A DNA stretch of 64,000 nt from Arion vulgaris (Eukaryota > Mollusca > Gastropoda > Stylommatophora > Arionidae): contig CM036767.1 of NCBI GenBank assembly GCA_020796225.1, forward strand, positions 18,033,927-18,097,926, written 5' to 3'. Every line of letters begins with the position of its first letter. Position 1 is the stretch's first letter. The notes beneath the pieces are model-generated. The model had not been told where the DNA came from. It searched no databases and saw nothing but the letters and a program-made list of their open reading frames with translations. This document shows positions 13,416 to 60,405 of this stretch, piece after piece. A program made the translations under genes and the position numbers.

Positions 13416-14306
13416 TATAAAAACTTGCCCGAGTGGTTACCAGGGCCCAAATTTGGGGTGTAAAGAATAGAACCACTGTTACCTGCCACGCATGTCGTAA
13501 GAGGCGACTAAGGAGGTTTGGCTGAAATCAGATGCATGTGTCCGCTAGGGAATGCTAACCCTAAACAAATGCTTGCAGAAAACGGATGCACCAGGTCGTA
13601 AAACGCATAACATGGTGCAACGACCACTCACAATGAGGAATGGGATAACGGATTTTACGGTCGCCAATCTGCCTAGAAGATTTAGCCACGCAGTAAGAAT
13701 GCCAGACCTACCATCACAAGGGTGGCCAAAATTTACTGCTGGAAGAGGTCGGCACAAATGGGGAAGCAGAAATCATAGGAATTATATCCTACAGAACTGC
13801 CCCCAGTGTGCAGACTTGAGAAGAAAGAGGTGGTCCACTTACACTAACGTCCAAGACAAACTGTATGGCATGGCTGATAATCTGAGGCAGACGGCTGCCT
13901 TTATTAGAGAATCAAATCCCAATCTAGTGAGAAAGCAGAAGACAAACTGTATGGTGTGGCTGATAATCTGAGGCAGACGGCTGTCTTTATTAGAGAAACC
14001 GAAATCCCAATCTAGTGAGAAAGCAGAAGACAAACTGTATGGCGTTGCTGATAATCTGAGGTAGACGGCTGCCTTTATTAGAGAATCCGAAATACCAATC
14101 TAGTGAGAAAGCAGAAGACAAACTGTATGGTGTGGCTGATAATCTGAGGCAGACGGCTGCCTTTATTAGAGAATCCAAATCCCAATCTAGTGAGAATGCA
14201 GAAGACAAACTATGGTGTGGCTGATAATCTGAGGCAGACGGCTGTCTTTATTAGAGAATCTGAAATCCCAATCTAGTGAGAAAGCAGAAGAAGAATATAA
14301 AAACTT
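13416..14306 (+). mobile_element. SINE-B copy with 11-bp TSD and a five-fold tail array
   Basis: The element (13427-14295) is bounded by TATAAAAACTT at 13416-13426 and 14296-14306. It has the tRNA-like CCCGAGTGGTTACCAGGGCC head, the conserved core and the long B body. Its terminal segment, from AGACAAACTGTATGG to the GAAAGCAGAAG tail, is repeated five times with starts at 13854, 13940, 14028, 14116 and 14203 (periods 86-88 bp). Other B copies in the window have one tail unit. Confidence 0.9.
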
Positions 14307-24589: not shown

Positions 24590-24822
24590 TAAAGGTCTAA
24601 AGATGAAGGATTGACTTCATGAACCGGATTTCCCCATATGGCTCCGCCCCTGTCAGCAGAGATGGCACGCCATCTACCGAGGGTGTTGCACGAACTCTGT
24701 AGCTCTGGGAACGCTCCTAGGGATCTCATGAAAAAACTGCACATATGACTTGGTCCAGATTTTAACCCACAACCTTCAGTACGTATTAACAACTTCGCCA
24801 TTGAGATCCCCAATCTGACTTT
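24590..24822 (-). mobile_element. SINE-J copy 1 (tRNA-derived)
   Basis: On the minus strand it begins GGGGATCTCAATGGCGAAGT (tRNA-like A-box region) and continues AACCTTCAG complement, GGTTGTGGGTTAAAATCTGG (B-box region) and GGTAGATGGCGTGCCATCTC to AGGATTGACTTCATG complement. It gives the reference structure for the copies at 36527, 47275, 57222 and 60178. Confidence 0.75.
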
Positions 24823-24839
24823 TTTTTTTTATTCAAGGA

Positions 24840-25560: not shown

Positions 25561-26305
25561 GGTTACTAAACTGACGTCATTGCACTCCGGGCAAACCCAT
25601 AGGTGCTCAGTCTCCCCAACAGATATCGAAGAGTATGCATACTGATGGTTCCTGTGGCTCGCTGATTAAACACACCTCTCACTCTGCCTCTCAGGCATCC
25701 AGTTCGACTTGAAAAAAGGGTAATTCCAAACTGCTTAAATCGCTTGATCGATTCAACATCGATTTTAGTGTCCTCATCCAACAGAGAGTCTCGAAGAGAC
25801 CGAAGAATATCCCCTTATCCATCTTCAACTCCCCAACAATCGATGCTGTTGATGCAAGCCTGTCCGCTCTCTCATTACCGTAAACACCCGCATGCCCAGG
25901 ACAGTATATCCACGTAAGCCGCTGGAGGTTAGAAACTTCTATAGACGACATCCACTCATACCGAAACCTGCCCTTCTGGATCTTGTGAAGCATCGACTGA
26001 GAGTCAGATACAACAACTGCCCCAGTAAATGAAGTCCCAGAAATCCAATGGAGGGCAGCAGTAACGGCCTCAACCTCCATCCTCATACTAGAAGTAGTTG
26101 TCCTGTATGCCCAACTTCGCTCTGCAACAACCCTACCATGCGCATTAGCCAAGAAACCCCAGCCGGATTTCTCACCACGTTGAACCGACCCATCGGTATA
26201 TACAACAACATCATCATCCCTTGCATTATCTTCTATCAGCTGCTTAACTGCGAGATCAGCCTTCATGTTGCCCCAATCTCTACATTCTCTTCCAAGATCT
26301 ATATA
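25561..26305 (-). pseudogene. nLTR-8 (jockey-like) LINE fragment with complete RNase H domain
   Basis: The 191-codon minus-strand frame holds a whole RNase H fold: VVVYTDGSVQRG (first Asp), SSMRMEVEAVTAALHW (Glu), VVSDSQSMLHKI (second Asp) and CPGHAGVYGNERADRLA (His and last Asp). This is the domain that follows RT in jockey/CR1-like LINEs. The RT part is missing and the frame opens into the next frame near 25780, so the copy is truncated but unusually well kept. Confidence 0.85.
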
Positions 26306-26504
26306 CCACGAGGTATGAAAGGGTTCCTTTACTGTGCAAGTAGTTCTTGTTTAGAGATATCATTGGACCAAAGCACATGTAAGATCTTTTGCAAAAGAGT
26401 TGTGTGGAAGGTGTAGAGTTTGGACATATCTTGTTCTGTCATTCTCCAACATTCTGATCCGTATATTGAAGCAACCTAGAATCACAGATTGACTAATCCT
26501 TTAT
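26306..26504. other. Non-coding DNA
   Basis: LINE-like antisense traces, no clear feature. Confidence 0.35.
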
Positions 26505-32499: not shown

Positions 32500-33115
32500 T
32501 GGTGGGACACTTTGTTCTATCATCATCTTCCTGCTAAGTTTCCATTGCATTTCTGTTTCTTGTACTGACATATGCAGTTATATAGGTGTTCTCTGATGCC
32601 CAATATGATGATCTTGATCTTAGTGCTCTCTTTCTAGATGCCATTGAATACTTTCTCCATGTCCACCAACACTGCCACTGATTGCTTTCTCCATGTCCAC
32701 CAACACTGCCACTGATTGCTTTCTCCATGTCCACCAACACTGCCACTGATTGCTTTCTCCATGTCCACCAACACTGCCACTGATTGCTTTCTCCATGTCC
32801 ACCAACACTGCCACTGATTGCTTTCTCTATGTCCACCAACACTGCCACTGATTGCTTTCTCCATGTCCACCAACACTACCACTGATTGCTTTTTTTGAAA
32901 AACCTTTGTAATTTCCTGGGCAATACAAGAAACATAATCTTCTGTTGATCTGTGTTGCCGGAAGTCACTATTAGTTGCTATCCTGTCAGATGCTACATGA
33001 GTCTCCTTCTGACCAGTTTTCTTATTAACTTCTTGTATGCTGCAGATTAGGTTGACTGGTCTTTAGCTACTCTGGTCAAGTCTATCTTTTCCATGCTTTG
33101 GGATGGGTACCATGA
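32500..33115 (-). pseudogene. LINE RT palm fragment carrying an internal minisatellite
   Basis: Reading the minus strand, the translation gives ATNSDFRQHRSTEDYVSCIA followed by QEITKVFQKKQSV and VLVDMEKVFNGI. This is the RT region FR..RST.D (motif 2a) then motif A with its catalytic Asp (VLVDMEKAFD). Between the two lies the 34-bp tandem array at 32640-32890, made of the motif-A codons themselves. Confidence 0.75.
32640..32890. repeat. 34-bp minisatellite made of RT motif-A codons, 7 units
   Basis: The unit, read on the minus strand, encodes VAVLVDMEKAI. As 34 is not a multiple of three, each unit shifts the frame, so all three frames stay open over 102 bp cycles and give 64-104 codon spurious proteins. 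Units are almost identical. Confidence 0.95.
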
Positions 33116-33118
33116 ATT

Positions 33119-33320
33119 ACTGAGAGCGCCTGGCTGAATGGATTAGAACGCTGGCTCACATTTGAGAGACACAGGTTTGATCCCAGTTACGGTTAAGGAG
33201 TTTTTTTCACGGGCATAAAGAAAAAATCCTATCCTGAACAGTTTTGCTGTGACTGCACTAGCCAGTGACTATTCAATTCCTCAGGCTCATGTCCCACATC
33301 TTCTACACTGCCTTAAAAAG
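33119..33320 (+). mobile_element. SINE-N copy 2
   Basis: The tRNA-like head GCGCCTGGCTGAATGGATTA has AGGTTTGATCCCAG as B box. The body GGCATAAAGAAAAAATCCTA and TGACTGCACTAGCCA match 15028-15260. Confidence 0.75.
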
Positions 33321-33469
33321 TGGTAACAAAGGCAGTAAAGATATTTTGAAGACCATGATAGCTTCTTTTCATTTGGAAGACACTTGTTCAGTTTACATGT
33401 GGAAGACACTTGACCGTTGGAATGTCTCTGTCGTAGTCTATATGTAGTGTGCTGTGAAATTCTTCACTC

Positions 33470-33565
33470 CTGTTGTATCGTTTGCTTGATAAAGACTTTT
33501 TGGTCGAAACGTTGCTGTGTATTGTCACTTTTTTTGTATTTTGTAAACTACAGTACAGTACTTTG
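33470..33565 (+). mobile_element. Penelope-like 3' tail with hammerhead-like core, copy 2
   Basis: TTGCTTGATAAAGACTTTTT then GGTCGAAACGTTGCTG and a T-rich run ending GTATTTTGTAAACTACAG. It is the same element end as at 31555 (inverted) and 57590. Confidence 0.5.
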
Positions 33566-34007
33566 TTATTACGCGTTTCGCCATTTTACATAGTTTACTG
33601 CAGTCTCCCCCTAGATCGATAATACTATTAAGTTTTCCAGCTGTTTCCTTTTTTTAAAAACTTCTTTCTTGCTTTAGGATGCAGGTTTATAAGCATTCTA
33701 TTTTTATATATAATTCGTGATTCAATCGATAGTTAAAAGAACTATTTAATCGAGAAATGAGTTGACGCGTAAGAATACATTTAGCTACCGAATGAATGAA
33801 AATGACGTAATTGTTTTGACAATTATCATTGCCGGAAGACGTCAAAGGTACACAATGTTACATCATAGATAGGTGCATTTTAAAATGAACTACCGAAAAA
33901 TAGTGCGTTTCGATATGCGTGACTGTATTCAGACTGTATACAATATTTTTTAATGATATTGTATATATTATTATGCTTGTTATGTTATTATGACATAATA
34001 TTTATAT
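33566..34007. other. AT-rich non-coding DNA
   Basis: No gene or repeat recognised. Confidence 0.4.
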
Positions 34008-34335
34008 TTTAGTGTTATATATTCAACTTTCAACGCTAATCAGTGTCAAGTTAAAAGTAATATTTATGAAGAAATAATTTATAAAACAATAAGTACACGT
34101 TACTCATTTTTGGTTTGGGGAGGTGGACCTTACTGACTAGGGAGCGAATACTAATTAGGGAAGAAAGGTGCGAAATTTCAGATGTTTTAGCGTTATATAT
34201 CAATTTTCAAAGCTAATCAGTATCACGTTGACAGTAATAATTATAAACAAATAATTTTTAAATTAATAAGTGCACGTTACTCAAAATTTTTGGTGGGGCT
34301 GGGCCCCACTGGCCCTTAATGACGAGCCGCCCCTG
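34008..34335. mobile_element. hAT MITE-related element with a ~175-bp spaced direct repeat
   Basis: The right end GGCCCTTAATGACGAGCCGC then CCCTG is the terminus of the hAT MITE family seen at 34451, 38713 and 48704. Internally two diverged ~105-bp copies (from TTTTAGTGTTATATATTC at about 34010 and TTTTAGCGTTATATATC at about 34185) lie in direct orientation. No matching left terminus was found. Confidence 0.55.
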
Positions 34336-34442
34336 AGCATAATGAATAAGCGTTCGCCTATCGACTCGGGACAAGAGGGTGTGAGTTCAATCCCACACTC
34401 CGCGTTCTGCATGTGGGGAAAAGAATTAGCCATCTCAAATTG
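34336..34442 (+). mobile_element. SINE-L copy 3, left part
   Basis: The head ATAATGAATAAGCGTTCGCC and B box GTGAGTTCAATCCCACAC are clear. It is interrupted at 34442 by the MITE and continues after 34622 (TGTATACCTCAAAAG). Confidence 0.75.
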
Positions 34443-34622
34443 GCCAATTGCAGTGGCGGCTCGTGGTCATATTTGTTGGTGAGGCCAGAAAAAATGTTCG
34501 GAAAAATCATGGTTTTGGGTTGTTATATTTTAATTTAGAAAATAATAAATACTCATTATACATTATTTTTGGTGGGGCCCGTCCCCACTGGCCCTTAATG
34601 ACGCGCTGCTACTGGCCAATTG
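34443..34622 (+). mobile_element. hAT MITE 1 with perfect 8-bp TSD
   Basis: A 164-bp element (34451-34614), CAGTGGCGGCTCGTGGTCAT ... CCTTAATGACGCGCTGCTAC TG, flanked by GCCAATTG on both sides. An 8-bp duplication and CAGTG termini are diagnostic of hAT. Confidence 0.9.
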
Positions 34623-34930
34623 TATACCTCAAAAGAAAGCCTAGTGGGTGATACTTTGGCTCCGTTGACAGTTTCATGTTTCTGATATATTAAATCACTG
34701 AATACATGTCCCCTTTATCTTCCCCCTCCCCATGTCGCATCCTTCCCTCTATATCTCCGCCCCCGCATCCACCCATCTCGTTTCCGGTTTCCCAACGCAA
34801 TTCATTGTTTCCTTCTGTAATATAAAACGACCTGTACAATCATGTTAGCTGGTATACGACAGTAGGCCTACAGCAGTAAAAAATACCAATAAGTAAATTA
34901 TATCATAGTTCACAGATATATATATATATA

Positions 34931-34961
34931 CAGTGGCGGCTCGTCATTATGGGCCAGTGGG
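34931..34961 (+). mobile_element. hAT MITE terminal fragment
   Basis: CAGTGGCGGCTCGTCATTAT directly follows an AT microsatellite and is fused to the jockey-like RNase H fragment at 34962. No second terminus is seen. Confidence 0.7.
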
Positions 34962-35840
34962 CTCATTACCGTAAACACCCGCATGCCCAGGACAGTATAT
35001 CCACGTAAGCATATGGAGGTTAGAAACTTCTATAGACGACATCCACTCATACCGAGACCTGCCCTTCTGGATCTTGTGAAGCATCGACTGAGAGTCAGAT
35101 ACAACAACGGCCCCAGTAAATGAAGTCCCAGAGAGCCAATGGAGGGCAGCAGTAACGACCTCAGCCTCCATCCTCATACTAGAAGTAGTTGTCATGTACG
35201 CTCCACTTCGCTCTGCAACAACCCTACCATGCGCATTCGCCAAGAAACCCCAACCGGACTTCTCACCACGATGAACCGACCCATCGGTATATACAACAAC
35301 ATCATCATCCCTTGCATTATCTTCTATCAGCTGCGAGATCAGCCTTCATGTTGCCCCAATCTCTACATTCTCTTCTAAGAGTAATGATAACGTTGAGATA
35401 GTTGGCCATGCTACTATCTGTTGGGATCCATTCTTCCCCTTTTGGTAGGATCGCAACCGTAGTCACCTGGCCAATTGTTCTCTCAGCCTGGGCCATCTAT
35501 GACATGCCACGCTTGATTCTCGTGCCCTTAACATCATTAGTGTTCTTGTGCAGTGGATGTCTCTTATCCGCAGTAACACACATATATGCCTTGGTTTGGG
35601 CGATTACATGACGGGAGTGTAGTGACAGAAGGCCAAGCATATATATCATCATGCATATATATCATCTTCACAATGGAGGTATCTCTAGTGGAGCCCAGGA
35701 CTATATGCATACCTTCATTCTGAACCCGTTCGAGTCGATCATATTGTGATCATGATATCGTAAGAATGACGAGTGCGTAATCCACCACGGACATAACCAG
35801 TCGATCGAACAAAAGGACAAGTAGTCTCTGCTCAAGGTGT
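34962..35840 (-). pseudogene. nLTR-8 (jockey-like) LINE fragment, RT thumb to RNase H
   Basis: Minus-strand frames in order: YDRLERVQNEGMHIVLG with STRDTSIV (end of RT), VKGTRIKRGMS and MAQAERTIGQV (connection), MANAHGRVVAERSGAYMTTT, and CPGHAGVYGNE. The RNase H domain stops abruptly at the MITE junction, before the last catalytic Asp, and the YTDGS block is out of frame. It is close to the copy at 25561-26305. Confidence 0.8.
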
Positions 35841-36526
35841 ACGACTACCATAACTTTGAGAGCCGCAAGACCACGCCTGCACCGTTGTATCGTCTGTTCA
35901 ACATGGTGTTTCTCTCTCTCTCTCGCGCAAACATGGTGTTTGAAAGATATACTACTTTCTTACTGTACCCATTACCTAGTCTAGCTTGTGTTCGTAAGAA
36001 CGCCTGTATTGCTAGGCTAGGCAATGGGTCAGTGGTTCGAATCCTGTGTTTGGTAATGTGTTTTTTTTCGGAAGCTATTAATACGTGTACACTGTCTATT
36101 TATTTCGTTAGAAAAGGGAAGTTAGCGAAAACAGTTACCTCTCTTTAGGGGAAGATCATAATTTGCGTAAAATCATTTGTAACCAACCTTTTATTCTGGG
36201 ACACCTCAATCTGGTGAGCTAGTAGTTATAAAGTAAGGAATATATTTTCATATGTGTCGTTCTTTACCTTTGGATCCATTCAATAAAAGCTATTGGAGTA
36301 ACGAATAAGTTACTATTCGCACAAGACTATAGCCTGTATAGTATTTCGTTACCCATGCAAAACGGGATCAACAAAGTTTGTTTTTTAAAACCAGATAAGT
36401 TATAAACATTACACAATAGTATTTCAACTAGGGCGAAATTCGTGTGTGCCTGTCTCCTACATTGCTGTATGGGGTCTAAGATCCGGAGTGCAATGTATTC
36501 ACGTTCTCTGTTCAAACCACACTGAT
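35841..36526. other. Non-coding DNA with a 19-bp hairpin and a perfect B box
   Basis: Imperfect inverted repeats ACCCATTACCTAGTCTAGC (35967-35985) and GCTAGGCTAGGCAATGGGT (36011-36029) pair at 17 of 19 positions. GGTTCGAATCC, an exact pol III B box, follows at 36034-36044. No gene is recognised. Confidence 0.55.
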
Positions 36527-36850
36527 AGTAGTCTCTGTGGCTAAGTGGTTAAGCCTTCGCTTTCTGTTCCGAACGTCCTAGGTTCTAATTCGGACCGCGC
36601 CGTTCTGTTAGCAAGTGCATTTTTTTCCAAATAGACACCTAGGATGTTACCGGAGCTACGGAGTTTGTGCATTACGCAATACTCTCGGTATGTAGCGTGC
36701 CGCTTCTGGGGAGAGAGACCGATCTATATGGGGTAAAACCCGGAGCAATGAAGTCAATCTTTCGGCTTTATACCCTGTAGACCACACAGAGATGAAGTGT
36801 CTACGCTGAATGCTGGGGGTAACAAGAAGAGACCGACTGAGAAATGAAAT
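36527..36850 (+). mobile_element. SINE-J copy 2
   Basis: The head CTGTGGCTAAGTGGTTAAGC, B-box region AGGTTCTAATTCGGACC, then GAGCTACGGAGTTTGTGC and GGGGTAAAACCCGGAGCAAT are all present in family order. Confidence 0.8.
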
Positions 36851-37372
36851 CAATAAAAAAAAGTGGGTACAACATCAGTACTAGACTTCATCAAGAAACA
36901 ACAAATTAAATGGTTCGGCCACATAAGCAGATTACATCAGACAGTGCACCCCAAAGAGCAATGCTGCTCCGATACAATGGGCAAAAGGCCGGCCGCACAA
37001 AAGATGGACCTCGGAGATAGCAGGAGTGCCAGGTAACGAGAAGGCAGACAAACTTGCTAAAAGGGAGCAGAATGTGAACAAATAGATAATGAAATCACAT
37101 ACTTTGAAAAAAGAGCTATCATGGACATTAGAAAAGAACCTACACCATCCAACGATGACTACCACACACTTGACAGACATGGACAGACTATCATCTTCCG
37201 ACTCAGGATAGGTCATAACAGACTGAACAAACACCTCCACAGGCTGCGATTGTCCCCAACCCCTCTGTGCCCCTGCTGAACAAACCACAGAACATGTCCT
37301 GCAAGACTGCCCCTGTATGTCCTCCCAAGAAAGGAATGCTGGCCCTACAACACAACACTACATTCAAAACTA
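36850..37372 (+). pseudogene. nLTR-7 LINE C-terminal region, chimeric
   Basis: The first part reads IKQQIKWFGHISRLHQTVHP-like RT C-terminus. From about 37000 another frame reads SEIAGVPGNEKADKLAKREQ (last RNase H motif), KKELSWTLEKNLHHP and EQTTEHVLQDCPCMSSQERN (CCHC-like end). The join of a non-RNase-H tail to an RNase H tail looks like a chimera of two LINEs. It runs directly into the 78-bp array. Confidence 0.65.
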
Positions 37373-38304
37373 CATGGCACTAGAGATGAGCTCCAGACTA
37401 CAGTCGATTTCATCATAAGAACACGTCTAACGGTATAATCATCAAAACTACATGGCACTAGAGATGAGCTCCAGACTACAGTCGATTTCATCATAAGAAC
37501 GCGTCTAACGGTATAATCATCAAAACTACATGGCACTAGAGATGAGCTCCAGACTACAGTCGATTTCATCATAAGAACACGTCTAACGGTATAATCATCA
37601 AAACTACATGGCACTAGAGATGAGCTCCAGACTACAGTCGATTTCATCATAAGAACACGTCTAACGGTATAATCATCAAAACTACATGGCACTAGAGATG
37701 AGCTCCAGACTACAGTCGATTTCATCATAAGAACACGTCTAGCGGTATAATCATCAAAACTACATGGCACTAGAGATGAGCTCCAGACTACAGTCGATTT
37801 CATCATAAGAACACGTCTAACGGTATAATCATCAAAACTACATGGCACTAGAGATGAGCTCCAGACTACAGTCGATTTCATCATAAGAACACGTCTAACG
37901 GTATAATCATCAAAACTACATGGCACTAGAGATGAGCTCCAGACTACAGTCGATTTCATCATAAGAACACGTCTAACGGTATAATCATCAAAACTACATG
38001 GCACTAGAGATGAGCTCCAGACTACAGTCGATTTCATCATAAGAACACGTCTAACGGTATAATCATCAAAACTACATGGCACTAGAGATGAGCTCCAGAC
38101 TACAGTCGATTTCATCATAAGAACACGTCTAACGGTATAATCATCAAAACTACATGGCACTAGAGATGAGCTCCAGACTACAGTCGATTTCATCATAAGA
38201 ACACGTCTAACGGTATAATCATCAAAACTACATGGCACTAGAGATGAGCTCCAGACTACAGTCGATTTCATCATAAGAACACGTCTAACGGTATAATCAT
38301 CAAA
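37367..38304. repeat. 78-bp tandem array of a LINE 3' end, 12 units
   Basis: Twelve near-identical units of AAACTACATGGCACTAGAGA through CGGTATAATCATC. In the LINE sense (+) each unit encodes LHGTRDELQTTVDFI plus RTRLTV and a stop, the last codons of the nLTR-7 ORF. The antisense strand is free of stops because 78 is a multiple of three, which gives a 323-codon artefact frame. The array ends with AAAAAGCGATCGCAAAGAAG, the LINE's own 3' tail. Confidence 0.95.
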
Positions 38305-38324
38305 AAGCGATCGCAAAGAAGAAG

Positions 38325-38450
38325 AAGAACGGTAGAAGGGGAGCTGAACGTAATGAATAACAGTTTGGACACAATACAGAGGACGGCAAAGAACAGAGAA
38401 AAATGGCGTGCGTTTGTTTCTGCCCTCAGTTAGAAGGGCGTCACATACAA
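38325..38450 (+). pseudogene. LINE 3' end fragment
   Basis: EGELNVMNNSLDTIQRTAKN followed by REKWRAFVSAL is a LINE C-terminus of the type also found antisense at 56375-56620. It follows the GAAGAAGAAG tail of the array without spacer. Confidence 0.6.
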
Positions 38451-38562
38451 GAGAGAGAAGTCAAAGTCGTAGCAGCACGTTTCAATACACATTATCTTCG
38501 TGGTATTTAGATAGAATCCAACACTTTGTTGAAGTAATATTCATCGCTATTCTTTGTAAAAC

Positions 38563-38920
38563 GTAATGTGTAAACGTTCCCTATCGACTCTGACACAAGA
38601 AGGAAGTGAGTTCAATCCAACACCTGACGCTCTACACACGAGGAAAGGAATTAGCCCTCTTACCTCCCTCACAGTAGGACCTAGAAATGTGAAGTAACTT
38701 CATACTCTAAGGCAGTGTCGACTCGGGATAATTTTTGTTGGTGGGGCCAGACAGATATTTTAGGAAAAATCATGGTGTCGGTTAGGATATATTTTAATGT
38801 ATAAAATAATAAATACACTTACACCTTTTTTTTGTGGCCGGCCCCACTGGCCCTTAATGACGAGCCGCCACTGCTCTAAGATCTGAAAAGCTACTGAACA
38901 TTTTATTTAAATGAAATTCT
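38563..38920 (+). mobile_element. SINE-L copy 4, split by a hAT MITE
   Basis: Head part ACGTTCCCTATCGACTCTGA with B box GTGAGTTCAATCCAACAC, then AAGGAATTAGCCCTC. After the MITE it continues as CTCTAAGATCTGAAAAGCTA, as in the other L copies. Confidence 0.75.
38705..38881 (+). mobile_element. hAT MITE 2 with 8-bp TSD, nested in SINE-L
   Basis: A 161-bp element (38713-38873) from CAGTGTCGACTCGGGATAAT to TTAATGACGAGCCGCCACTG, flanked by CTCTAAGG and CTCTAAGA (one mismatch). Confidence 0.85.
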
Positions 38921-39067
38921 TCATTTAAGAATGTAGATAGTAATCATCTGAACATTTTTGTGAATGCTAACAGAACACGAACAATACATCAGTCTTTGGT
39001 TTCTTTTCTTACTCTCGTTCGCTTTCGAAACACAACTAAATTATCGTACTCGGAATATGTTCCGCCC

Positions 39068-39322
39068 ATGTGTGTTGCCGGGTCTCGCAAGGGGAGCAAC
39101 GAATAGTAACACTGAGACCTACAAGGCATGTCGTAAGAGGCGACTGAGGTAGTGGCTTAGGGAAGCTACCCTAGTAAATAAAAGGCGTCTCAGAAATCGG
39201 ATGTGCTAGCCTACTTGTAGGCGCATAACTGGCACAACGTACACTCGCTCTTAGGCTCAGATCACATACATATCACAAAGAGTGGTTTAACAAGTGGTCG
39301 ATAGGAACTTCGAAGAAGAATT
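39068..39322 (+). mobile_element. SINE-C copy 3, full length
   Basis: Head GTGTTGCCGGGTCTCGCAAG, core GCATGTCGTAAGAGGCGACT, body GCCTACTTGTAGGCGCATAA, and tail ACTTCGAAGAAGAA. Confidence 0.85.
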
Positions 39323-39945
39323 GTATTCACAAATACACGCAGATGCACATACTCTTTCTCTTTCCCCTTCTCTCTTTCTTGCGTGCGCACACACACAAAC
39401 ACAATATCACATTCAAGAGTGTAGGATTCCCTCAACCAAACAACAACAAAACGGCCAAGATAAAAATAATGACTATTAGTAAAGCGTGGTGACATTTTAA
39501 AGTTAATGAAATGGGTGTTCACGTCCATAGTCTATTCACGGACATCGTCAGTTCCATCTAGTGCGGCTTTCGTTAGAGTCGGATGTGCATCTAGTTTAGT
39601 TAGGATATCTGCACGCTGTTTACCGCACGTACAACAGACAGGTTGACTCGACATTACAGGTAAATTTGATATGAAACATACAGGTAGGTGAGAAATTAAA
39701 CACCCTTGTTGTACAGAAAGGGAATGAACCATGGGCGCCCACGCGTTAAGTCAAATATGAGGGGGTGTGTGGTAGTGCCACCTCCAGGAAATGCTTTATG
39801 CAAAGCTGGTCTTCTCCATTTCCACGTAGTAAACTACCAATTTAAAATATTTCAAGTTCATATTGCCCCTCCTAAAAAAAATTCAGTGGACGCCCATGCC
39901 TATTGTCTCCAGGACAATAGCTACGGAAATATAAAGTACGGGTTA
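39323..39945. other. Mostly unassigned DNA
   Basis: The minus strand at 39535-39640 reads GKQRADILTKLDAHPTLTKA, possibly the tail of an RNase H domain. Nothing else is recognised. Confidence 0.35.
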
Positions 39946-39949
39946 GTTA

Positions 39950-40190
39950 ATTGCATATCCTTTACAGGACTTTGCGAATCAACTCCCAGTTTTTTTAACG
40001 CTGTTTGTGATTTTTCTAGGCATTATTACGTTCAGTAGTTTGCCATTGCTTTCTGAACGGGTGGTGCCATCGTCCTTTGTAAAAGTCCACACAAAACAAT
40101 TTGCAACCAAATTGTCCGCAGCGTGATTCGAACTCAGAACGTCGGGATTAATAGACCGAGTTACAAACCCTAAGCCACAGACGCCACACG
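39950..40190 (-). mobile_element. SINE-M copy, near full length
   Basis: It is collinear with 23191-23420 (TTTACAGGACTTTGCGAATC, TCTAGGCATTATTACGTTCA, GTCCGCAGCGTGATTCGAAC) and extends further into the head (GTTACAAACCCTAAGCCACA complement). Confidence 0.75.
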
Positions 40191-40284
40191 AAAGTACGGG
40201 TAGGATCCACAATTTAATGTTTTGAAATATTAAAGTTTACGAAATAAGTATTATAACGTGATCGTGAGTATACTGAGGAATTAA

Positions 40285-40755
40285 GAGAACGACTAAGCTA
40301 AGGACTTTGTTTAAATTGTTGTTAATGTACTGAGAAAAGTCGGTGCGCAGGCAATGGACTGAATCACTGCAGGCGTTAACAATTTGCAGACTTACACTTG
40401 TCTTTGTTCCGGGGCACATGGGTGTCGTTGGCAATGAGAGAGACGGCTGTCAGGCTCTGCCGCTATATCAGAGGGCCAGCCAATGGACAGAGCTGACATC
40501 GTGAAGGCCCTCATAGAGCGTGGCCGCAGAGACCTTCATCTAAACCAATCCACGTCAACTACTAGATTGCGAGAACTGGGTTTGAAGATTGGCGTGGCCA
40601 GAAAAGAACGGTACAACAGGTATACGAGTAGGCTCATCAATCAAAATAGAACTGGTACGGTCAGTCGCTGGACGCTGATGGAGATATTGCGAAGGAGATC
40701 GGAGCACCTATGGACATGTCCGGAGTGCAATGAAGATATTCCAAACTGAAACTGA
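40285..40755 (+). pseudogene. nLTR-8 (jockey-like) LINE C-terminus
   Basis: The + strand reads LVFVPGHMGVVGNERD-like sequence (RNase H end; GCACATGGGTGTCGTTGGCA), then an open 88-codon frame, MDRADIVKALIERGRRDLHL through RRSEHLWTCPECNEDIPN, with a Cys-containing C-terminus. This is the intact 3' end that identifies the short copies at 2645, 3955 and 16020. Confidence 0.8.
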
Positions 40756-40861
40756 GAAATGACAATGATGACAACGACCAAGATTATGACTACTATTCAG
40801 ATTGTCAGTGCATATCAGTAGCAGTCAGTTGGATTTGCACACCGGTGAACAATATATTTAT

Positions 40862-40951
40862 TTGTTGCGTCAGTGGTTTTTCTTGGTCACTCTGTGGAAG
40901 GATGAGGGCAGGAACTTTCTGATTTGGGGGGAAAATTTGGAATCATCGCTG
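40862..40951 (+). CDS. Weak candidate exon
   Basis: Between an acceptor-like TTATTTGTTGCGTCAG and a donor GTAAGT, one frame is open and reads WFFLVTLWKDEGRNFLIWGE then NLESSLELL. No family is recognised and chance cannot be excluded. Confidence 0.2.
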
Positions 40952-41027
40952 GAGCTACTATGTAAGTGCTTTTCTGATTACACTTTTAGCTATATTTAAG
41001 GGGCCGAGCTCGTATTGGGGCACCGTG

Positions 41028-41215
41028 ATTGATTGATTGATAGGATCATCATCATTGCACTTCGGTGAGTAGCCATGTGTGCTCCGATCTCTTTCTAACA
41101 CAGGAAGATCTCAGCTGCAGTGCATGAACTCCATAGCACGGCAAGGGTCCCTGATGTAATTTTGAAGATGTGAAGATATTTTTGTTGGAATTTGTTTAAA
41201 CATTTTTTCATCTTT
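41028..41215 (-). mobile_element. SINE-F 3' half
   Basis: TGATTGATTGATAGGATCAT, TTTCTAACACAGGAAGATCT and AAGGGTCCCTGATGTAATTT match the family. Confidence 0.7.
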
Positions 41216-41440
41216 TCTAATGGTGACACCGCGAGTGTATAGACACCGATTCTATTCAGCTTACTGTTGTTCAGAAACTGTTTGGGTCAGTTAAGATCTG
41301 GTCTCTGTATTATTCAGTATTTTTTCTCACCAAATGTGAGTTGCTTACCATATTATTTGATTCAACTCATCAAAAAGTTTGTCATGAGCAGAACTTTGCT
41401 ACCTTAACAGATAATTCTTGAAATTCTCTCTCTCTCTTCT
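41216..41440. other. Non-coding DNA
   Basis: No feature recognised. Confidence 0.35.
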
Positions 41441-41830
41441 TTCTTCTCCTCTCTCATAGGTCAGATGTCACACACCAGCAACCGTCATGTTCAAACCATC
41501 AGTTATATCCTGAATCCATATTATCCGTGGTCTTCCTTTTCTTCTCATTGCCGGAATGCCTCCTTCCATGATGGTCTTCACTAGTCCTTAGTGCTCTCAT
41601 TTCTCATTGAATGCCTCTTCCATGATGGTCTCTCAGCCCCGAGTCTCTTTATATGTGCAAAATACTTACATTTCTTCTCATTGCCGGAATGCCTTCCTTT
41701 CCATGATAAGAATTCTTTTTATTGCAGCCCTATGTGCCGAGTCTCTTTATATGTGCAAAATACTTACAATTCTTCTCATTCTTATTTGTAGCATCAGCCA
41801 GTTTGATTTGATTTTGAGTTCTTTCTAGAT
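41440..41830 (-). pseudogene. nLTR-1 LINE 3' end with internal duplications
   Basis: Antisense of the nLTR-1 tail (CTCATAGGTCAGATGTC ... TTTATATGTGCAAAATACTT). The segment around CATTGCCGGAATGCC and CCGAGTCTCTTTATATGTGC is present two to three times, so part of the coding tail is tandemly duplicated relative to 1845-2092 and 16555-16800. Confidence 0.7.
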
Positions 41831-41975
41831 AGATTATTTGATTAGTCCAATAAAATCTCCACATCAAAGGTAGACTGCAAAGGATCCAACACTTCCTGTT
41901 TTGTTCAGCAGTATGGAGGCATGTCCGTATGTTAGTATCAATTTCTTGTCATCGTTAGTTAATATTACACCCGTC

Positions 41976-42222
41976 TGTTGACGGGGCTCTCAAGCGAATC
42001 AAAGAATAGTACCACTGTGACCTACAAGGCATGTTGTTAGAGGCGACTGAGGTAAGGGACTATGGAAGCTACCCTAGTAAATAAAAACGTCGCAGAAATC
42101 GGATGTGCTGGCCTACTTGTAGGCGCAAACTGGCACAACGTACACTCGCTCTTAGGCTCAGATCACATACAAATCACAAAGAGTGGTTAAAAGTGGTAGT
42201 TCAAGTAAGAAGAGGATGAAGT
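41976..42222 (+). mobile_element. SINE-C copy 4
   Basis: Head GTTGACGGGGCTCTCAAGCG, core GCATGTTGTTAGAGGCGACT (two changes), body CTACTTGTAGGCGCAAACTG, and tail TTCAAGTAAGAAGAGG. Confidence 0.8.
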
Positions 42223-42390
42223 TAGAACTATGTTTTAGTTTATTAAGTATTCCTTGTCTGTACTTGGTATCTTCATAAAGAATGGTTAACAAGTGGTAGT
42301 TCAAGTAAGAAGAGAATGAAGTTAGAACTATGTTTTAGTTTATTAAGTATTCCTTGTCTGTACTTGGTATCTTCATAAAGATCTATGGTC
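42191..42390. repeat. 100-bp direct duplication spanning the SINE-C tail
   Basis: AAGTGGTAGTTCAAGTAAGA begins at 42191 and again at 42291. Each unit runs through TGTCTGTACTTGGTATCTTC. The duplicated segment includes the SINE-C 3' end and the beginning of a hammerhead-like Penelope tail. Confidence 0.85.
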
Positions 42391-42450
42391 GAAACGTAGA
42401 GTGCTGTTATTTTCATATTTAGTCATTTATTTTTCCTAGCTTATGTAATA
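42368..42450 (+). mobile_element. Penelope-like 3' tail with hammerhead-like core, copy 3
   Basis: CTTCATAAAGATCTATGGTC then GAAACGTAGAGTGCTG and a T-rich stretch. It is diverged from copies 1 and 2 but keeps ATAAAG...GGTCGAAACG. Confidence 0.4.
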
Positions 42451-42599
42451 CTGTAATTTACATGTCTTTGTCCATATTGCGATTTACTCAGTATTATCGC
42501 ATTCTCCCACGGTCTGCCATCTCAGATCTGTAGGTTTCCAGAGGACATCGTCTTTTACATCTCCTAATGTTTACTTCCTAATTTTATCACTATCTTCCT

Positions 42600-43436
42600 C
42601 GTGACAACTTGCCCTCAACGTGCCCTCAACGTGTCCTCCAGTATTGTTTCCAACAGAGACTCATGTCTGCTTCTGCTTTACGATCGCTATTTTGATGATT
42701 TTACCGTCATGCGCCTTCTTTTGATGAAGTCGACTGTTGTCTGGAGCTCATCTCTGGTGCCATGTATTTTTGAATGTAGTGTTGTGTTGTGCATTCCTTT
42801 ATATGAGGACATACAGGGGTGCAGGACATATTCTGTTGTTTGATCAGCGGTGTCACATAGACACATAGAGGATGGGGACAATCGTAGCCTATGTAAGTGT
42901 TTGTTCAGTCTGTTATGTTCTATCCTGAGTCGGAAGATGATGGTCTGTCCTGATCATTCAATTGGATGGTCATGCTGGTAGTTTATGTTCATGCTATTTC
43001 TTCTGTGTTATAGTTATGTCTGTCATTTCTTTTGTTGTTATAGTTTATGTTCATGTCTATTTCTTCTGTTGTTATAGTTTATGTTCATGTCTATTTCTTC
43101 TTCTGTTGTTGTCGATTTTTATTGGGTTGTTGCCCAGTGCCGTGGCTTGGGTGATATAATATTTGTGTCAGAATTCTACTATACCATCTTTCCATCTTTT
43201 TCTTGTTATTCCTCTCACCTTCTGTCCTGATGTTCTGCTATAGAATATTATGTTTACCTTGTTGTTAGGTTAAATTATTTGTATGTTGCTGAACCACTTT
43301 ATTCTTTGTTTCTCAATGTAACTCATGCAAGGTTATGACCCAAATTTCTCTCTTATATGCTGTTGTTGGTAACTTTTCGAAGACACCGCATTTCATATGT
43401 AGTTATTTTTGGTGACTGCGTTTTACTAACTGTCCT
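42600..43436 (-). pseudogene. nLTR-7 LINE C-terminal region
   Basis: The right part (43120-43420) is antisense RT C-terminus, also seen at 52430-52800. The left part ends with HNTTLHSKIHGTRDELQTTV and DFIKRRRMTV, the single-copy form of the segment amplified twelve times at 37367. The 3' tail is AGCGATCGTAAAGCAGAAGC (42665-42690 complement). A ~40-bp unit (TTATAGTTTATGTTCATGTC) is repeated three to four times at 42975-43100 inside the copy. Confidence 0.7.
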
Positions 43437-43689
43437 CGCCCGAGTGGGCCCAAATTTGGGGTGTACAGAAAAGAACACTGTTACCTGCCACACATGTCGT
43501 AAGAGGCGACTAAGGAGGTTTGGATGAAATCGGATGCACGTGTCCTAGACGTGTAGAAGTCTATGCGTTTAGGGGCCTACCAAACCAATGTGCAACGTAT
43601 ACACGTTCTTGGCAATGAGCAAACATATCACAAAGAGTGATTAAAATTGGTCGTAAAGAACGAACGCAAAGAAGAAGACTAACTGTCCT
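43425..43689 (+). mobile_element. SINE-A copy with perfect 12-bp TSD, nested in a LINE
   Basis: A 241-bp element (43437-43677) flanked by ACTAACTGTCCT at 43425-43436 and 43678-43689. The head (lacking GTTACCGG), core, body and CGAACGCAAAGAAGAAG tail are all present. Confidence 0.9.
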
Positions 43690-43815
43690 TGGTTGACTCT
43701 GGTAGCACAGCGTAGGCATGACAATGCTGTTGATCATCTTGTTGTTTAGCTGGGCATAGACCCTCAACCAACTCATGCCTTCCTATCTCTAGCTATCTCC
43801 TGCATCTCCCTCCAG
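43690..43815 (-). pseudogene. LINE fragment right of the SINE-A insertion
   Basis: The minus strand reads LNNKMINSIVMPTLCYQSQP, the RT 'VLPTLLYGSE'-type block. It continues the LINE left of the SINE. Confidence 0.55.
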
Positions 43816-44500
43816 CTCTTCTTTATATTGTTGATCTCCGCCTCCAAATCTCGTCTCCATGTATTTTCGGCCTCCTCTTTCGCTGTCCCTGCGGGTTCCA
43901 GGCAAGGACCCTTCTTGTTATATTCCCTCCGGTTTTCGCAAAGTGTGTCCTATCCAGCGCCAGCATCTTTTTAACCTGTTCGTTCACTGGAATATGTCTT
44001 GTTCTCTCCATAAGTTCCTCATTTGTGACCCTATCATACCATCTTATTCCCTCTATTCTGCGCAGACACCAGTTGATGAATGTTTGCAATTTATGTGCTA
44101 TTGTTTTAGTTGTTCTCCATGTTTCTGACTATTTACAATCTGGTGCTATTGTTTTAGTTGTTCTCCATGTTTCTGACTATTTACAATCTGGTGCTATTGT
44201 TTTAGTTGTTCTTCATGTTTCTGACTATTTACAATCTGGTGCTATTGTTATAGTTGTTCTCCATGTTTCTGACTATTTACAATCTGGTGCTATTGTTTTA
44301 GTTGTTCTCCATGTTTCTGACTATTTACAATCTGGTGCTATTGTTTTAGTTGTTCTCCATGTTTCTGACTATTTACAATCTGGTGCTATTGTTTTAGTTG
44401 TTCTCCATGTTTCTGACTATTTACAATCTGGTGCTATTCTTCTTCTTCTTTCGTTCACCCGCATGAGTTCAGACGTAGTCAGGGTGCCTATCAGCACCTG
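43816..44500 (-). pseudogene. nLTR-6 LINE RT C-terminus with internal 48-bp array
   Basis: The minus-strand 88-codon frame reads MQTFINWCLRRIEGIRWYDR, then HIPVNEQVKKMLALDRTHFA and VLAWNPQGQRKRRPKIHGDE, the thumb and C-terminal region of a LINE RT. Upstream, the 'SETWRTTKTI' codons that should occur once are repeated (44100-44440). A + strand collinear copy is at 51900-52180. Confidence 0.8.
44096..44440. repeat. 48-bp minisatellite made of RT thumb codons, 7 units
   Basis: The unit CTGACTATTTACAATCTGGT plus GCTATTGTTTTAGTTGTTCT CCATGTTT. In LINE sense (minus) it reads SETWRTTKTIAPDCK and stop, so each unit contains the RT 'GSETW' motif. Being a multiple of three, it leaves a 158-codon + strand artefact frame. 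Confidence 0.95.
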
Positions 44501-45292: not shown

Positions 45293-45799
45293 GTGATTGA
45301 TTAATTGATTGATAGGACCATCATCATTGCACTCGGTGAGTAACCATGTGTGCTTCGATGTTATTTCTTACACAGGAATAACTTATCATCATTGCACTCG
45401 GTGAGTAACCATGTGTGCTCCGATGTTATTTCTTACACAGGAATAACTTATCATCGAACTTCGTAGCAGCGCTGGTGAGAGTCCACGATGTAATTTAGAA
45501 AATGGTTAACATTAAGATCTTTTATAGGAATTGTTTATTAATAATAATCCTTTTCTAATGTATTTGCACGGGCAGCGGTATTTCAGCCTACTCTTCTCGA
45601 TATCGAACTGCCAATGGTTCTTTTACGTGCTCAAATTGAACACGGGACCTACTTTTATCGTCCGTCTCCGATAGGACTAGGAACTAGATCTCATCTACAC
45701 TGAGATCAGGCATCTCTGGAAAAATATCCCGATGGCTCCATGAAGTAGCGAACCTGGTACCTTTGTCACGAGAGACGAGCACCTAGCCTCTACGCCACA
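45293..45799 (-). mobile_element. SINE-F full-length copy with a ~72-bp internal duplication
   Basis: All F blocks are present to the head complement CACCTAGCCTCTACGCCACA. The block ATCATTGCACTCGGTGAGTA to TTTCTTACACAGGAATAACT occurs twice in tandem (about 45323-45468). Confidence 0.8.
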
Positions 45800-50140: not shown

Positions 50141-50790
50141 GTGGCAGAGATGAAAATGGAAAAAATAACCAGATGTTATTTCAAAACACGCATTCTGTCT
50201 GAATTTTTTAATGTCGTATGTGATGGTGCCGAATCCAAAGAAATCGAAGCAGAAAATGCAGAAGACGTGTCCCACTGTGTAGTGGATGAAAGCAGTGCTA
50301 TAGAAGAATCATCATTACCAATACTACCATTAAGATCAGTAACTCTTCACGATTTAGCCACATTTTTCACAAGACAAACTGAAATCGAATGTACAGAAAG
50401 TCTTCCCAATTTAGCCATATCAACTTCAAGCCAAAGAGAGACAGAAAGCTACAGACATGCTTCTAATGAAGCAACATCTTCTACAAGCCAAAACACTACG
50501 AAAGTAAAATGTACTCAACGATATTGGTGAATGGCCAAACAATTTCAATCGAGATTATTGGATTGTGAAAGAAAGTAGCGAAGTGCAACATATGAACAGT
50601 GATTTCTTGTCTTAAAAAAACATACAATAAAGAAAACAATCCACGATTTTGTCGAAAGTCGTTTTTCACATACACACATACACCAACAAACAAAACTCAC
50701 GTAAGAGATTGGTTGTGTTATACAGAAACTAAAGGACAACTGTTATGTTTTGTTTGCAAAGTTATTGATTTAGGCTGTACCATAGAGTGA
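50141..50790 (+). pseudogene. hAT transposase N-terminal part with TTF-type zinc finger
   Basis: The frame at 50141-50530 (129 codons) is acidic and Ser-rich, like the low-complexity N-terminus of ZMYM1-like hAT proteins. After a stop and frame change, 50599-50790 reads FTYTHTPTNKTHVRDWLCYT then ETKGQLLCFVCKVI, a TTF-type zinc finger ('RDWL.YS...G..FCF.C'). The link between the two is broken by a frameshift near 50530. Confidence 0.75.
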
Positions 50791-51235
50791 CTGGTGTATT
50801 TGGAATACTCCGGCAGTTAAAATCTATTACAGCAGAAGAGGTCTTGAAAAGAACTCCAAATATTGTCAGCTCTTACCAAGAGGATTTGGAAGAAAGCCTA
50901 GGCGACGAACTTATGCAGTTCACTGAACTTCTTAAAACTAATGTAGCTGCTGCTATTAGCAACGAAAAGCATGAGGCTCTTGAACTGCAATTTTATAAAC
51001 TTATAATGGAAAATTCATTAGAGTCGTGTTTCCCAAATGTAGAAATAGTCTTACGAATTTACTTGTTTTTAATGATTACTAACTGCAGCGAAGAAAGTTC
51101 TTTTTCGACATATAAAAGCGTATTCGAGCGTATAAAAGGTGAGTTCAGGAACATGATGGGACAAGAATATAAAAATAACCTCACCTTAATGAACATTGAA
51201 TGTAATTTACTTGAGAAATTGATTTGTCTAGTATT
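50787..51235 (+). pseudogene. hAT transposase C-terminal part with dimerisation domain
   Basis: The 180-codon frame starts in a helical region (ITAEEVLKRTPNIVSSYQED) and ends with the hAT dimerisation block, FPNVEIVLRIYLFLMITNCS, EESSFSTYKSVFERIKGEFR and NLTLMNIEC. About 300 residues with the DDE catalytic core are absent between the zinc finger and this part, so the gene cannot encode an active enzyme. Confidence 0.85.
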
Positions 51236-51544
51236 ATCTCTAAATTTGCTCACATTAAATCGAGACAAGTTTGTTTGTAAAAGTTGTGTTTTATTTTATT
51301 ATCATACAAAATCTAGGGCCCCGCGCTAAAATTTGCTACGGGCCATCGCTAGCCTAATCCGGCACTGCTCCACACAGTATAACACGCAGTCTTCCAAATC
51401 AACACAAGCTTTGAATATTCTGTTGTTGGCATCACAGTCAATATTTGCCGCTCTGAATAGGTTGCTTCCAAGAGAAACAAAGTTGTCCCCAAATCTTCAG
51501 TGCTATGCTCAATATAAATATTACATAGCATTAGACGAAGTAAC

Positions 51545-51889: not shown

Positions 51890-52190
51890 AAACGGTTCTC
51901 CTGTAGGTGTCAGAAACATGGGGAACGACTAAAACTCGAATAAATTGCAAACATTCATCATCTGGTGTTTGCGCAGAATAGAGAGACTGAGATGGTATGA
52001 CAGGGTCACAAATGAGATTATACAGAGAACGAGACAGATCCAAGTTAATCAAGAGGTTAAGAAAAGATGTTTAAGCTGGATAGGGCACACCTTGAGAAAA
52101 GGAAAATATAACTAGAAATGCTCTTTCCTGGAACCCGCAGGAGAAACGAGGGTCTAAAAATACACGGAGACGATATATATGGAGGCAGAA
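51890..52190 (+). pseudogene. nLTR-6 LINE RT C-terminus, single-copy thumb
   Basis: The + strand reads LQTFIIWCLRRIERLRWYDR, VNQEVKKRCLSWIGHTLRKG and, shifted, FLEPAGET. It shows the normal unamplified order of the segment that became a 48-bp array at 44096. Confidence 0.75.
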
Positions 52191-52199
52191 ATGAACGGT

Positions 52200-55472: not shown

Positions 55473-56038
55473 GTGTTATCATTTGTTAATGTGCAGGTAG
55501 TTATTCTTCTTTGCGTTCGTTCTTTACGACCAATTTTAATCACTCTTTGTGATATGTTTGATCTTTGCCAAGAACGTGTATACGTTGCACATTGGTTTGT
55601 AGGCCCCTAAACGCATAGATTTCTACACGTTTAGGACACGTGCATCCGATTTCAGGCAAACCTCATTAGTCGCCTCTTACGACATGCATGTCAGGTAACA
55701 GTGGTTCTATTCTTTACACCCCAAATTTGGGCCCCGGTAACCACTCGGCGGTGTTATGATTTGTTAATGTGCAGGTAGTTATTCTTCTTTGCGTTCGTTC
55801 TTTGACCAATTTTAATCACTCTTTGTGATATGTTTGATCTTTGCCAAGAACGTTATACGTTGCACATTGGTTTGGTAGGCCCCTAAGCGCATAGACTTCT
55901 ACACGTTTAGGACAGGTGCATCCGATTTCATCCAAACCTCCTTAGTCGCCTCTTACGTCATGCGTGGCAGATAACAGTGGCTCTATTCTTTACACTCCAA
56001 ATTTGGGCCCGGTAACCACTCGGCTAGCAGGTAGTTAT
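55473..56038 (-). mobile_element. Two SINE-A copies in direct tandem
   Basis: SINE-A at 55506-55750 and another at 55783-56026, same strand. The 33 bp before the first (55473-55505) are repeated between them (55751-55783) with one change. The second copy has its own 12-bp duplication GCAGGTAGTTAT (55771-55782 and 56027-56038). This fits one insertion followed by tandem duplication of flank plus SINE. Confidence 0.85.
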
Positions 56039-59739: not shown

Positions 59740-60108
59740 CAACAGTAAATTCCTAACGGCCCTAAAATGAAAATCTGTGGGAAATCGAATAACAGTTAGT
59801 GCAATTGTTTTCATGCAATGGTTTCCTGACGATTGTCACCGATGACATCCATGCAAGCTCCGGATGCATGACAAAATGTTATTTCGTGTTATCTTTCTTT
59901 AGCAATTGCACTTGTTATGTAGAGTGATTGTTCTATTATGATGGTCCTATAATTAATCAAGCAATCAGGCTATCAATCAATCAAGCTATCAATCAGGCTA
60001 TCAATCAGGCTATCAATCAAAGTAAAGAAAATGTTTTCATTCCGTGAATATTTTACATATTTATATATATTTTTTTCATGCATTTGAAATACTGCCATAT
60101 ACCTGATC
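59740..60108. other. Non-coding DNA with a short ATCAATCAGGCT repeat
   Basis: CAGTAAATTCCTAACGGCCC resembles the Penelope-flanking block at 12011 and 31683. TATCAATCAGGC / TATCAATCAA recurs at 59966-60018. No gene. Confidence 0.5.
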
Positions 60109-60109
60109 T

Positions 60110-60405
60110 CCATGGCGAAGTCTCAATGGCGAAGTCTTCATTGCGAAGTCTCAGTGACGAAGTCTCCATGGCGAAGTCTCCATGGCGAAGTGGTAAAGTC
60201 GTTTACCTGTCCTACTGAAGGTTTTGGGTTAGAATCTGGACCGAGACACATGTGCAATTCTTTCATTAGATCCCTAGGATTGTTGCTGGAGCTACGGAGT
60301 TCGTGCGCTGTGCAATGCTCCTGGCAGATGGCATGCCATCTCTGCCGAAAGGGACGGAGCATATATGGGGAAACCCGGTGCAATTATGTCAATCCTTCTC
60401 CTCTC
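60110..60405 (+). mobile_element. SINE-J copy 5 with its 5' head amplified six times
   Basis: A 14-bp unit (ATGGCGAAGTCTCC and variants) is repeated six times at 60112-60196 and runs straight into the intact A-box region ATGGCGAAGTGGTAAAGTCG of the SINE. The SINE then continues normally (AGGATTGTTGCTGGAGCTAC, GGGGAAACCCGGTGCAATTA). The copy at 24590 has this head once. Confidence 0.85.

What the first reader, a model, noticed from the sequence alone, without database searches (positions are those of the whole stretch)
32640..44440. Transposon fragments repeatedly turned into minisatellites
At least eight tandem arrays in this 64-kb window consist of pieces of SINEs or LINEs that occur once in sister copies: LINE 3' end x12 (37367-38304, 78 bp), RT motif-A codons x7 (32640-32890, 34 bp), RT thumb codons x7 (44096-44440, 48 bp), SINE-B tail x5 (13854-14295, ~87 bp), SINE-J head x6 (60112-60196, 14 bp), SINE-C/Penelope tail x2 (42191-42390, 100 bp), part of nLTR-7 (42975-43100, ~40 bp) and nLTR-1 tail (41600-41780). 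This suggests a genome-wide process that nucleates tandem repeats within TE copies, perhaps template slippage during reverse transcription or repair.
Basis: partly seen in the sequence, partly recalled or inferred. Interest (0 to 1): 0.75.

Follow-up and report, generated by a model that had tools for sequence, protein, structure and literature searches.

The report
LINE tail repeatedly expands into minisatellites
In this large animal genome (probably a snail's), pieces of jumping genes have been copied head to tail into short arrays, and the tail of one LINE family carries such arrays at the same place in many of its copies; the phenomenon is known, and jumping genes do not look like its preferred source here, but this family is a tidy case for studying how satellite DNA is born.

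Summary
The arrays are real. Five of the eight listed are TE-derived with a single-copy relative (37364, 13853, 32639, 60107; 44095 in part). 42174 straddles a SINE end, 42979 is not shown to be TE, 41600 is an irregular two-copy duplication.

A TE-directed process is not supported in the sample I could test: of 71 tandem repeats with units of at least 20 bp in about 186 kb, 15 overlap dispersed repeats, against 34.7 +/- 4.2 expected by position.

The best array, 37364-38305, is not a one-off. It is the last 78 bp of a LINE family. Of the 29 nearest other copies, 28 hold one unit, yet 7709 unit-unit junctions occur genome-wide; the arrays read share one register, set by a 6-bp direct repeat. 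On C1, 17 of 17 array loci keep the array's 5' edge although insertions are often cut just upstream. This favours growth in the DNA after insertion over slippage by reverse transcriptase. Whether arrays arose many times or few is less sure: one clade is weakly rejected on long bodies (p = 0.0465) but not on 345 bp. Known kind; new member.

The parts
37364..38305 (+). 78-bp x 12.1 array: last codons, stop and 3' end of a LINE ORF
   Evidence: TRF; single-copy sister 42690-42950; 28 of the 29 nearest other genomic copies loaded have one unit
37023..37363 (+). LINE body upstream of the array (about 341 bp, 5'-truncated)
   Evidence: matches to other copies start near query position 124 of 36900-37370; homology to L033 begins here
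38300..38330 (+). 3' terminus of the same LINE: TCAAAAAGCGATCGCAAAGAAGAAGAAG...
   Evidence: same terminus followed by differing flanks in other copies
42666..42950 (-). related LINE copy with one 78-bp unit
13853..14291 (+). 88-bp x 5 array: last 88 bp of SINE-B up to its GAA tail
   Evidence: TRF; single unit in sisters 1224-1595 and 4774-5141
32639..32892 (-). 34-bp x 7.5 array inside a decayed LINE RT (LVDMEKA; the name motif A is recalled)
   Evidence: TRF; frames on either side; single copy in relative L022
44095..44438 (-). 48-bp x 7.2 array at the 5' edge of a truncated LINE piece (SETWRTTKTIA)
   Evidence: TRF; frames; partial single-copy sister 51909-52196; relatives of the adjoining piece in fetched loci
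60107..60191 (+). 14-bp x 6 array: head of SINE-J
   Evidence: TRF; one copy in sister 24600-24830, by eye
42174..42381 (+). 100-bp x 2 duplication straddling the 3' end of a SINE
   Evidence: TRF; SINE similarity stops near 42200
45320..45455 (+). 65-bp x 2 duplication inside a SINE, not in the finding
55473..56024 (+). tandem dimer of a SINE (276 bp x 2), not in the finding
42979..43101 (.). 34-bp x 3.8 array next to a repeat; TE origin of the unit not shown
41600..41780 (-). irregular two-copy duplication in an nLTR tail; not a TRF array

Best explanation
These are ordinary TE-derived minisatellites in a minisatellite-rich, TE-rich genome. For the main array the likely course is: (1, shown for part of the copies) an RNase H-bearing LINE inserts by target-primed reverse transcription, leaving one 78-bp segment near its 3' end that is flanked by a 6-bp direct repeat (TCAAAA ... 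TCAAAA). (2, inferred) After insertion, slippage or unequal exchange between the two short repeats duplicates the segment. (3, inferred) Further slippage, unequal crossing-over and local homogenisation grow the array to between 2 and about 80 units. (4, inferred for a minority) Some arrays took in units from other LINE copies or were inherited with the template. The other TE arrays of the window can follow the same route, with 4-8 bp of repeat at their edges. TE bases are not preferred over other DNA as seeds in my sample; this one LINE end is a recurrent site.
For: Same register, up to point changes, in the arrays read, with 5' edge CACTACAT|TCAAAA. In the 28 single-unit copies the unit begins with TCAAAA in 28 and TCAAAA follows it in 26 (not in L032, L060). 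Nearest relatives of the window copy hold one unit (28 of 29). Arrays of 2 and 3 units exist beside long ones. Long-body tree: at least 5 changes, one clade rejected weakly (AU p = 0.0465; 8 array, 21 single rows). 17 of 17 array loci of C1:1-100 Mb keep the array's 5' edge, with 11 to more than 600 bp of body (the 11 bp of L068 by eye). If arrays had been on the template at today's size and cuts were uniform, 10 of 10 usable loci cut within 400 bp of body would have a chance of about 0.0007 (five loci with longer bodies and two of unknown array length not used). 20 of 25 arrays have within-array divergence no more than 0.01 above twice the body's end branch. Target-site duplications of 8 bp or more in 7 of 23 array copies tested, against 1.3% of mismatched pairs. 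No TE enrichment.
Against: The 345-bp tree does not reject one clade of all 25 arrays (p = 0.198), and without L001, L015 and L040 a single clade of 22 fits slightly better than the free tree (p = 0.543). In both trees well-supported branches alone force only one change, and the array label is more clustered than in shuffles (0 of 500 as low; 15-17 of 500), although rows were picked so that this could follow from sampling: singles nearest to the window, arrays by array score. Five of 25 arrays (L005, L012, L019, L028, L040) are more diverse than their body allows, and C18, C45, A14 recur across arrays. A60, in 11 of 12 window units, is in none of 28 single-unit copies but at 30% or more in nine other arrays; T36+A60 units make up 18 of 31 units read in L002 and in L011, 3 in L017, 1 in L023. 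So the window array may come from an array-bearing parent; A60 is a CpG transition, which weakens but does not remove this. Only 3 of 41 arrays have private fixed variants. The truncation estimate is rough.
Confidence: 0.6

Rival explanations
1. Array-bearing LINE lineages: the array arose once or a few times in a mobile master and was copied as part of the element; single-unit copies are other lineages or contractions.
For: Shared unit variants across arrays, such as T36+A60 in L001, L002 and L011 and A60 in nine other arrays but no single copy; 345-bp tree does not reject one clade (p = 0.198; 0.543 without three rows); array label clustered on both trees; five arrays more diverse than their body allows. 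In human, LTR12 tandem repeats are said to be propagated by transposition (PMC3389668, section 3 read).
Against: Array copies sit in several parts of the long-body tree (at least 5 changes, AU p = 0.0465); no array of 17 on C1 begins inside the array; unit number runs from 2 upward.
Confidence: 0.26
2. Slippage of reverse transcriptase on the LINE RNA during target-primed reverse transcription made the array in one step at insertion.
For: Arrays of the LINE and SINE-B lie near the 3' end, where reverse transcription starts; insertions have target-site duplications; the 12 units of the window copy differ by 0.4%, as expected of one event.
Against: Slipping transcripts should often be cut inside the array, and 0 of 17 are; arrays of 2-3 units in diverged copies fit slow growth; the RT-motif and SINE-head arrays are not at 3' ends.
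Confidence: 0.1
3. Assembly artefact: collapsed or expanded repeats from read overlap errors.
For: Raw reads not examined.
Against: Units differ by point variants, lengths vary by locus, unit edges are constant, and differing flanks lie directly beyond the 3' terminus.
Confidence: 0.03

Closest known systems
TE-derived minisatellites of the human genome (Ahmed and Liang 2012, PMC3389668; abstract and section 3 read)
   Same: Pieces of retrotransposons turned into tandem arrays; most at single loci, 185 clusters at several loci; flanking direct repeats of 5-20 bp in 300 of 7276
   Different: Here one LINE end does so at many loci in one register. The human paper counts 23% of minisatellites and satellites as TE-derived
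SINE-derived satellites of squamate reptiles (PMC10702118; abstract and discussion read)
   Same: Part of a retroelement amplified, with a terminal piece reaching the element's end; most variants thought to have independent origins
   Different: SINEs, not a LINE coding end; those arrays reach up to 1000 units and favour subtelomeres
Short arrays in the 3'UTR of Ogre LTR retrotransposons (PMC7004042; passages read)
   Same: Array at a fixed place downstream of the coding region, lengthening at some loci
   Different: There such repeats are common in the elements; here the nearest copies have one unit
Central repeats of non-autonomous Helentrons in oyster (PMC7492417; abstract read)
   Same: Mollusc; arrays spread with mobile elements
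   Different: DNA transposon with built-in repeats; the nearest LINE copies here are single-unit

Membership tests
TE-derived minisatellite | unit is homologous to a TE segment that is single in other copies | tested here: met
   37364, 13853, 60107, 32639; 44095 in part
TE-derived minisatellite | array lies inside or at the edge of a TE copy with TE sequence continuing outside | tested here: met
TE with built-in tandem repeats (Ogre or Helentron type) | array present in most copies of the family | tested here: not met
   28 of the 29 nearest other copies have one unit; the rest of the family was not counted
LINE with RNase H domain (I-like group; clade name recalled) | RNase H domain in the ORF upstream of the array | tested here: met
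   PF00075 at 25.8 bits, exactly the curated cut-off, in a frame of L033
LINE with RNase H domain (I-like group; clade name recalled) | insertion by target-primed reverse transcription: truncated 5' end, fixed 3' terminus, target-site duplication | tested here: met
   (duplication of 8 bp or more in 7 of 23)
LINE with RNase H domain (I-like group; clade name recalled) | placement in a named clade by RT tree | not tested
   no RT tree was made
Satellite DNA proper | long homogenised arrays in heterochromatin | not testable with these tools
   longest seen: matches span C4:68847308-68853825, about 80 units; no chromatin data

The most novel reading that the evidence does not exclude
The 3' end of this LINE family is a portable seed for satellites: the 78-bp segment with its flanking TCAAAA repeats makes new insertions prone to grow an array in the same register, so that retrotransposition scatters hundreds of independent, parallel satellite births over one genome.
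Probability: 0.27. Interest if true: 0.62.

Novelty: new member of a known kind. Interest (0 to 1): 0.4.

Why it matters
How a single-copy segment first becomes a tandem array is an open question; the human survey could explain only 6% of its TE-derived arrays by accepted mechanisms (PMC3389668, abstract and section 3 read). Here the same segment stands at many sites with 1, 2, 3 and more units, so the rate of the first duplication, its dependence on flanking repeats and on age, and later homogenisation could be measured in one genome. The negative result also matters: in the sample tested, TE coverage predicts more TE-derived arrays than are seen.

Tried and rejected
Rejected: that TEs are the preferred source of arrays in this sample; that the 37364 array is unique to this copy; that it is part of most close copies. 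Led nowhere: Rfam (0 matches), ARAGORN (0), Pfam on nine of the ten pieces (the tenth is a hAT domain) and on the two (nothing above a curated cut-off), a protein search with the RT piece (none), a PDB sequence search (two chance-level rows). Private fixed unit variants as a sign of independent origin were found in only 3 of 41 arrays, so that test is weak. One paper search found no paper with all six terms; another, for at least four of five terms including gastropod, none.

Not done for lack of service: genome searches for the arrays 32639, 13853 and 44095 were sent but did not complete; those for 60107, 42174, 42979 and 41600 were planned and not sent; a count of all LINE ends was sent and not answered. 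The genome search answered three requests. So the fraction of LINE copies with arrays is unknown, and recurrence is shown for one family only. An earlier count gave the sizes of two fetches as 184 and 15.7 kb; recounted they are about 135 and 15.2 kb.
Full report
Setting. The window is G000:C15:18033927-18097926 of an assembly of 1.52 Gb in 3227 contigs. Among the 120 hits listed (of 143) for its RNase H reading frame at 25694-26350, the organisms named are the land snail Bradybaena similaris (four hits, 36-55% identical) and one bacterial metagenome genome (Omnitrophica); the other hits, the best one (94%) included, name none. A gastropod is likely, not proved. Dispersed repeats cover at least 53% of the non-array bases of the window, counted against itself and the loci fetched by then.

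Arrays. TRF gives 32 rows on the window, 29 loci after merging. Seven of the eight arrays of the finding are called. Comparison within the window and by eye shows single-copy relatives for 37364 (LINE), 13853 (SINE-B), 60107 (SINE-J head) and part of 44095 (LINE). The 32639 array lies in a decayed LINE reverse transcriptase: one frame reads RSTEDYVSCIAQEI ... LVDMEK into the array, and L022 holds a relative with one LVDMEKAFDTVW; the names RT and motif A for this stretch are recalled, since Pfam, a protein search and a PDB sequence search did not recognise the piece. 42174 is a 100-bp duplication across a SINE end, 41600 an irregular two-copy duplication, and 42979 is not shown to be TE.

Is there an excess? 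In the window plus 122,035 flank bases of 68 loci, with the 78-bp LINE masked in the loci, 71 tandem repeats have units of at least 20 bp. 15 of them (6 of 17 in the window) have half a unit covered by a dispersed match, against 34.7 +/- 4.2 for random segments. One of the 15, 61318, may count through array-to-array matches. Of 55 with enough flank (16 dropped), 11 have both flanks in dispersed repeats, against 42% of random points. The sample is small, the flanks are LINE insertion sites, and short units inside old TEs are hard to see; but there is no sign of enrichment.

The LINE array. A search with 37000-38700 found copies on many contigs with the same array (81 matches from 40 scored of 6248 candidates; this query favours arrays). 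Oriented and parsed, L001-L028 hold 9 to at least 31 units (several loci end inside the array) directly after the LINE body; where the end was fetched, the same terminus, TCAAAA(A)AGCGATCGCAAAGAAG..., follows, with small changes in some, then differing flanks. L029 and L030 lie in the same C4 array as L011 and were left out of counts; that array spans about 6.2 kb, or 80 units. A search with the flank alone (40 scored of 3937 candidates) gave 29 other loaded copies of 96-98% identity in the flank: 28 have one unit, one (L040) has five. The unit-unit junction, with up to 2 mismatches, occurs 7709 times against 2 for the control. The exact places listed there form 17 loci in the first 100 Mb of C1; if even, about 260 such loci in the genome (extrapolated). 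Twelve of the 17 were fetched: 2, 2, 2, 3, 3, 3, 6, 6, 7, 8, 9 and at least 13 units, with bodies about 75 to 95% identical to the window's where enough body was left, and 100% over the 32 bp of L067. Two more are L004 and L009 (14 and 17 units); of the other three only the 5' edges were fetched.

Where do arrays form? The arrays read share one register, up to point changes, set by TCAAAA at both ends of the unit. All 28 single-unit copies begin it with TCAAAAC and 26 of 28 have TCAAAA after it. Other arrays of the window show 4-8 bp of repeat at their edges (read by eye): AAGA in SINE-B, AAAG in the RT array, AATAGCAC at 44095, ATCATC at 45320. A single-copy relative to show that the repeat came first was seen only for the LINE and SINE-B.

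When do they form? (a) Tree of 25 array and 28 single rows on about 345 bp (four array rows with under 240 bp dropped): at least 7 changes, none of the inner branches strongly supported, so supported branches force one; label more clustered than in any of 500 shuffles; one clade of all 25 not rejected (p = 0.198), and one clade of 22, without L001, L015 and L040, fits slightly better than the free tree (p = 0.543). Tree on long bodies, 8 array and 21 single rows: at least 5 changes, supported branches again force one, 15-17 of 500 shuffles as low, one clade rejected weakly (p = 0.0465). Changes cannot tell gain from loss; the more distant sister at 42690 also has one unit. (b) All 17 C1 loci keep the 5' edge (L068 has 11 bp of body by eye). 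If arrays had been on the RNA at their present length, 10 of 10 usable loci cut within 400 bp of body would have a chance of about 0.0007 (L073 and L075 left out because their array length was not fetched, five loci with longer bodies not used). (c) Within-array divergence is at most twice the body's end branch plus 0.01 in 20 of 25; L005, L012, L019, L028 and L040 exceed it. (d) Unit variants: all 12 window units carry T36, found in 15 of 28 single copies; 11 of 12 carry A60, found in no single copy and at 30% or more in nine other arrays. T36+A60 units also make up 18 of 31 units read in L002 and 18 of 31 in L011, 3 in L017 and 1 in L023. A60 is a CpG transition, so repetition by chance is possible, but an array-bearing parent is not excluded for the window copy. 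(e) Target-site duplications of 8 bp or more flank 7 of the 23 array copies tested (of 41 parsed), against 1.3% of mismatched pairs.

Verdict. Growth in the DNA after insertion, started between short direct repeats, is the best single account; inheritance or exchange is needed for a minority and could be more common than I think. The kind is known: TE-derived minisatellites in human, SINE-derived satellites in reptiles, 3' arrays of Ogre elements, oyster Helentrons (PMC3389668, PMC10702118, PMC7004042, PMC7492417; parts read are named under Closest known systems). A review also holds that any part of a TE may give rise to tandem repeats and that no part is clearly preferred (PMC9659126; abstract and sections 2.2 and 4 read). 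I saw no description of this LINE array in the listings of six paper searches, which cover one open-access library only.

Noticed in passing
58555-59738 and 61318-64000: The two longest arrays of the window (15 bp x79 and 21 bp x130). The first has no dispersed-repeat match to speak of; the second runs to the end of the window and is matched in part by fetched loci.
   Followed up: partly
50769-51326: Reading frame with a hAT family C-terminal dimerisation domain (PF05699).
   Followed up: no
L012, L028, L005 arrays: Arrays on young LINE bodies contain units with variants such as C45 (and C18, A14 in L012) that are typical of older copies, as if units had been exchanged between loci.
   Followed up: partly
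L024:2904-2961, L026:518-575, L027:1138-1195, L033:1236-1293, L058:1269-1332: A 30-bp duplication (1.9-2.1 copies) at five loci, each matched elsewhere; perhaps a built-in repeat of one dispersed family (the units were not compared).
   Followed up: no
L004, L005, L006, L008 (5' ends): Four array copies are cut at nearly the same place, about 351-355 bp upstream of the array; the flanks of L004, L006 and L008 share nothing. A possible truncation hot spot.
   Followed up: partly
38300-38330: The LINE terminus contains the palindrome GCGATCGC just before its GAA tail.
   Followed up: no
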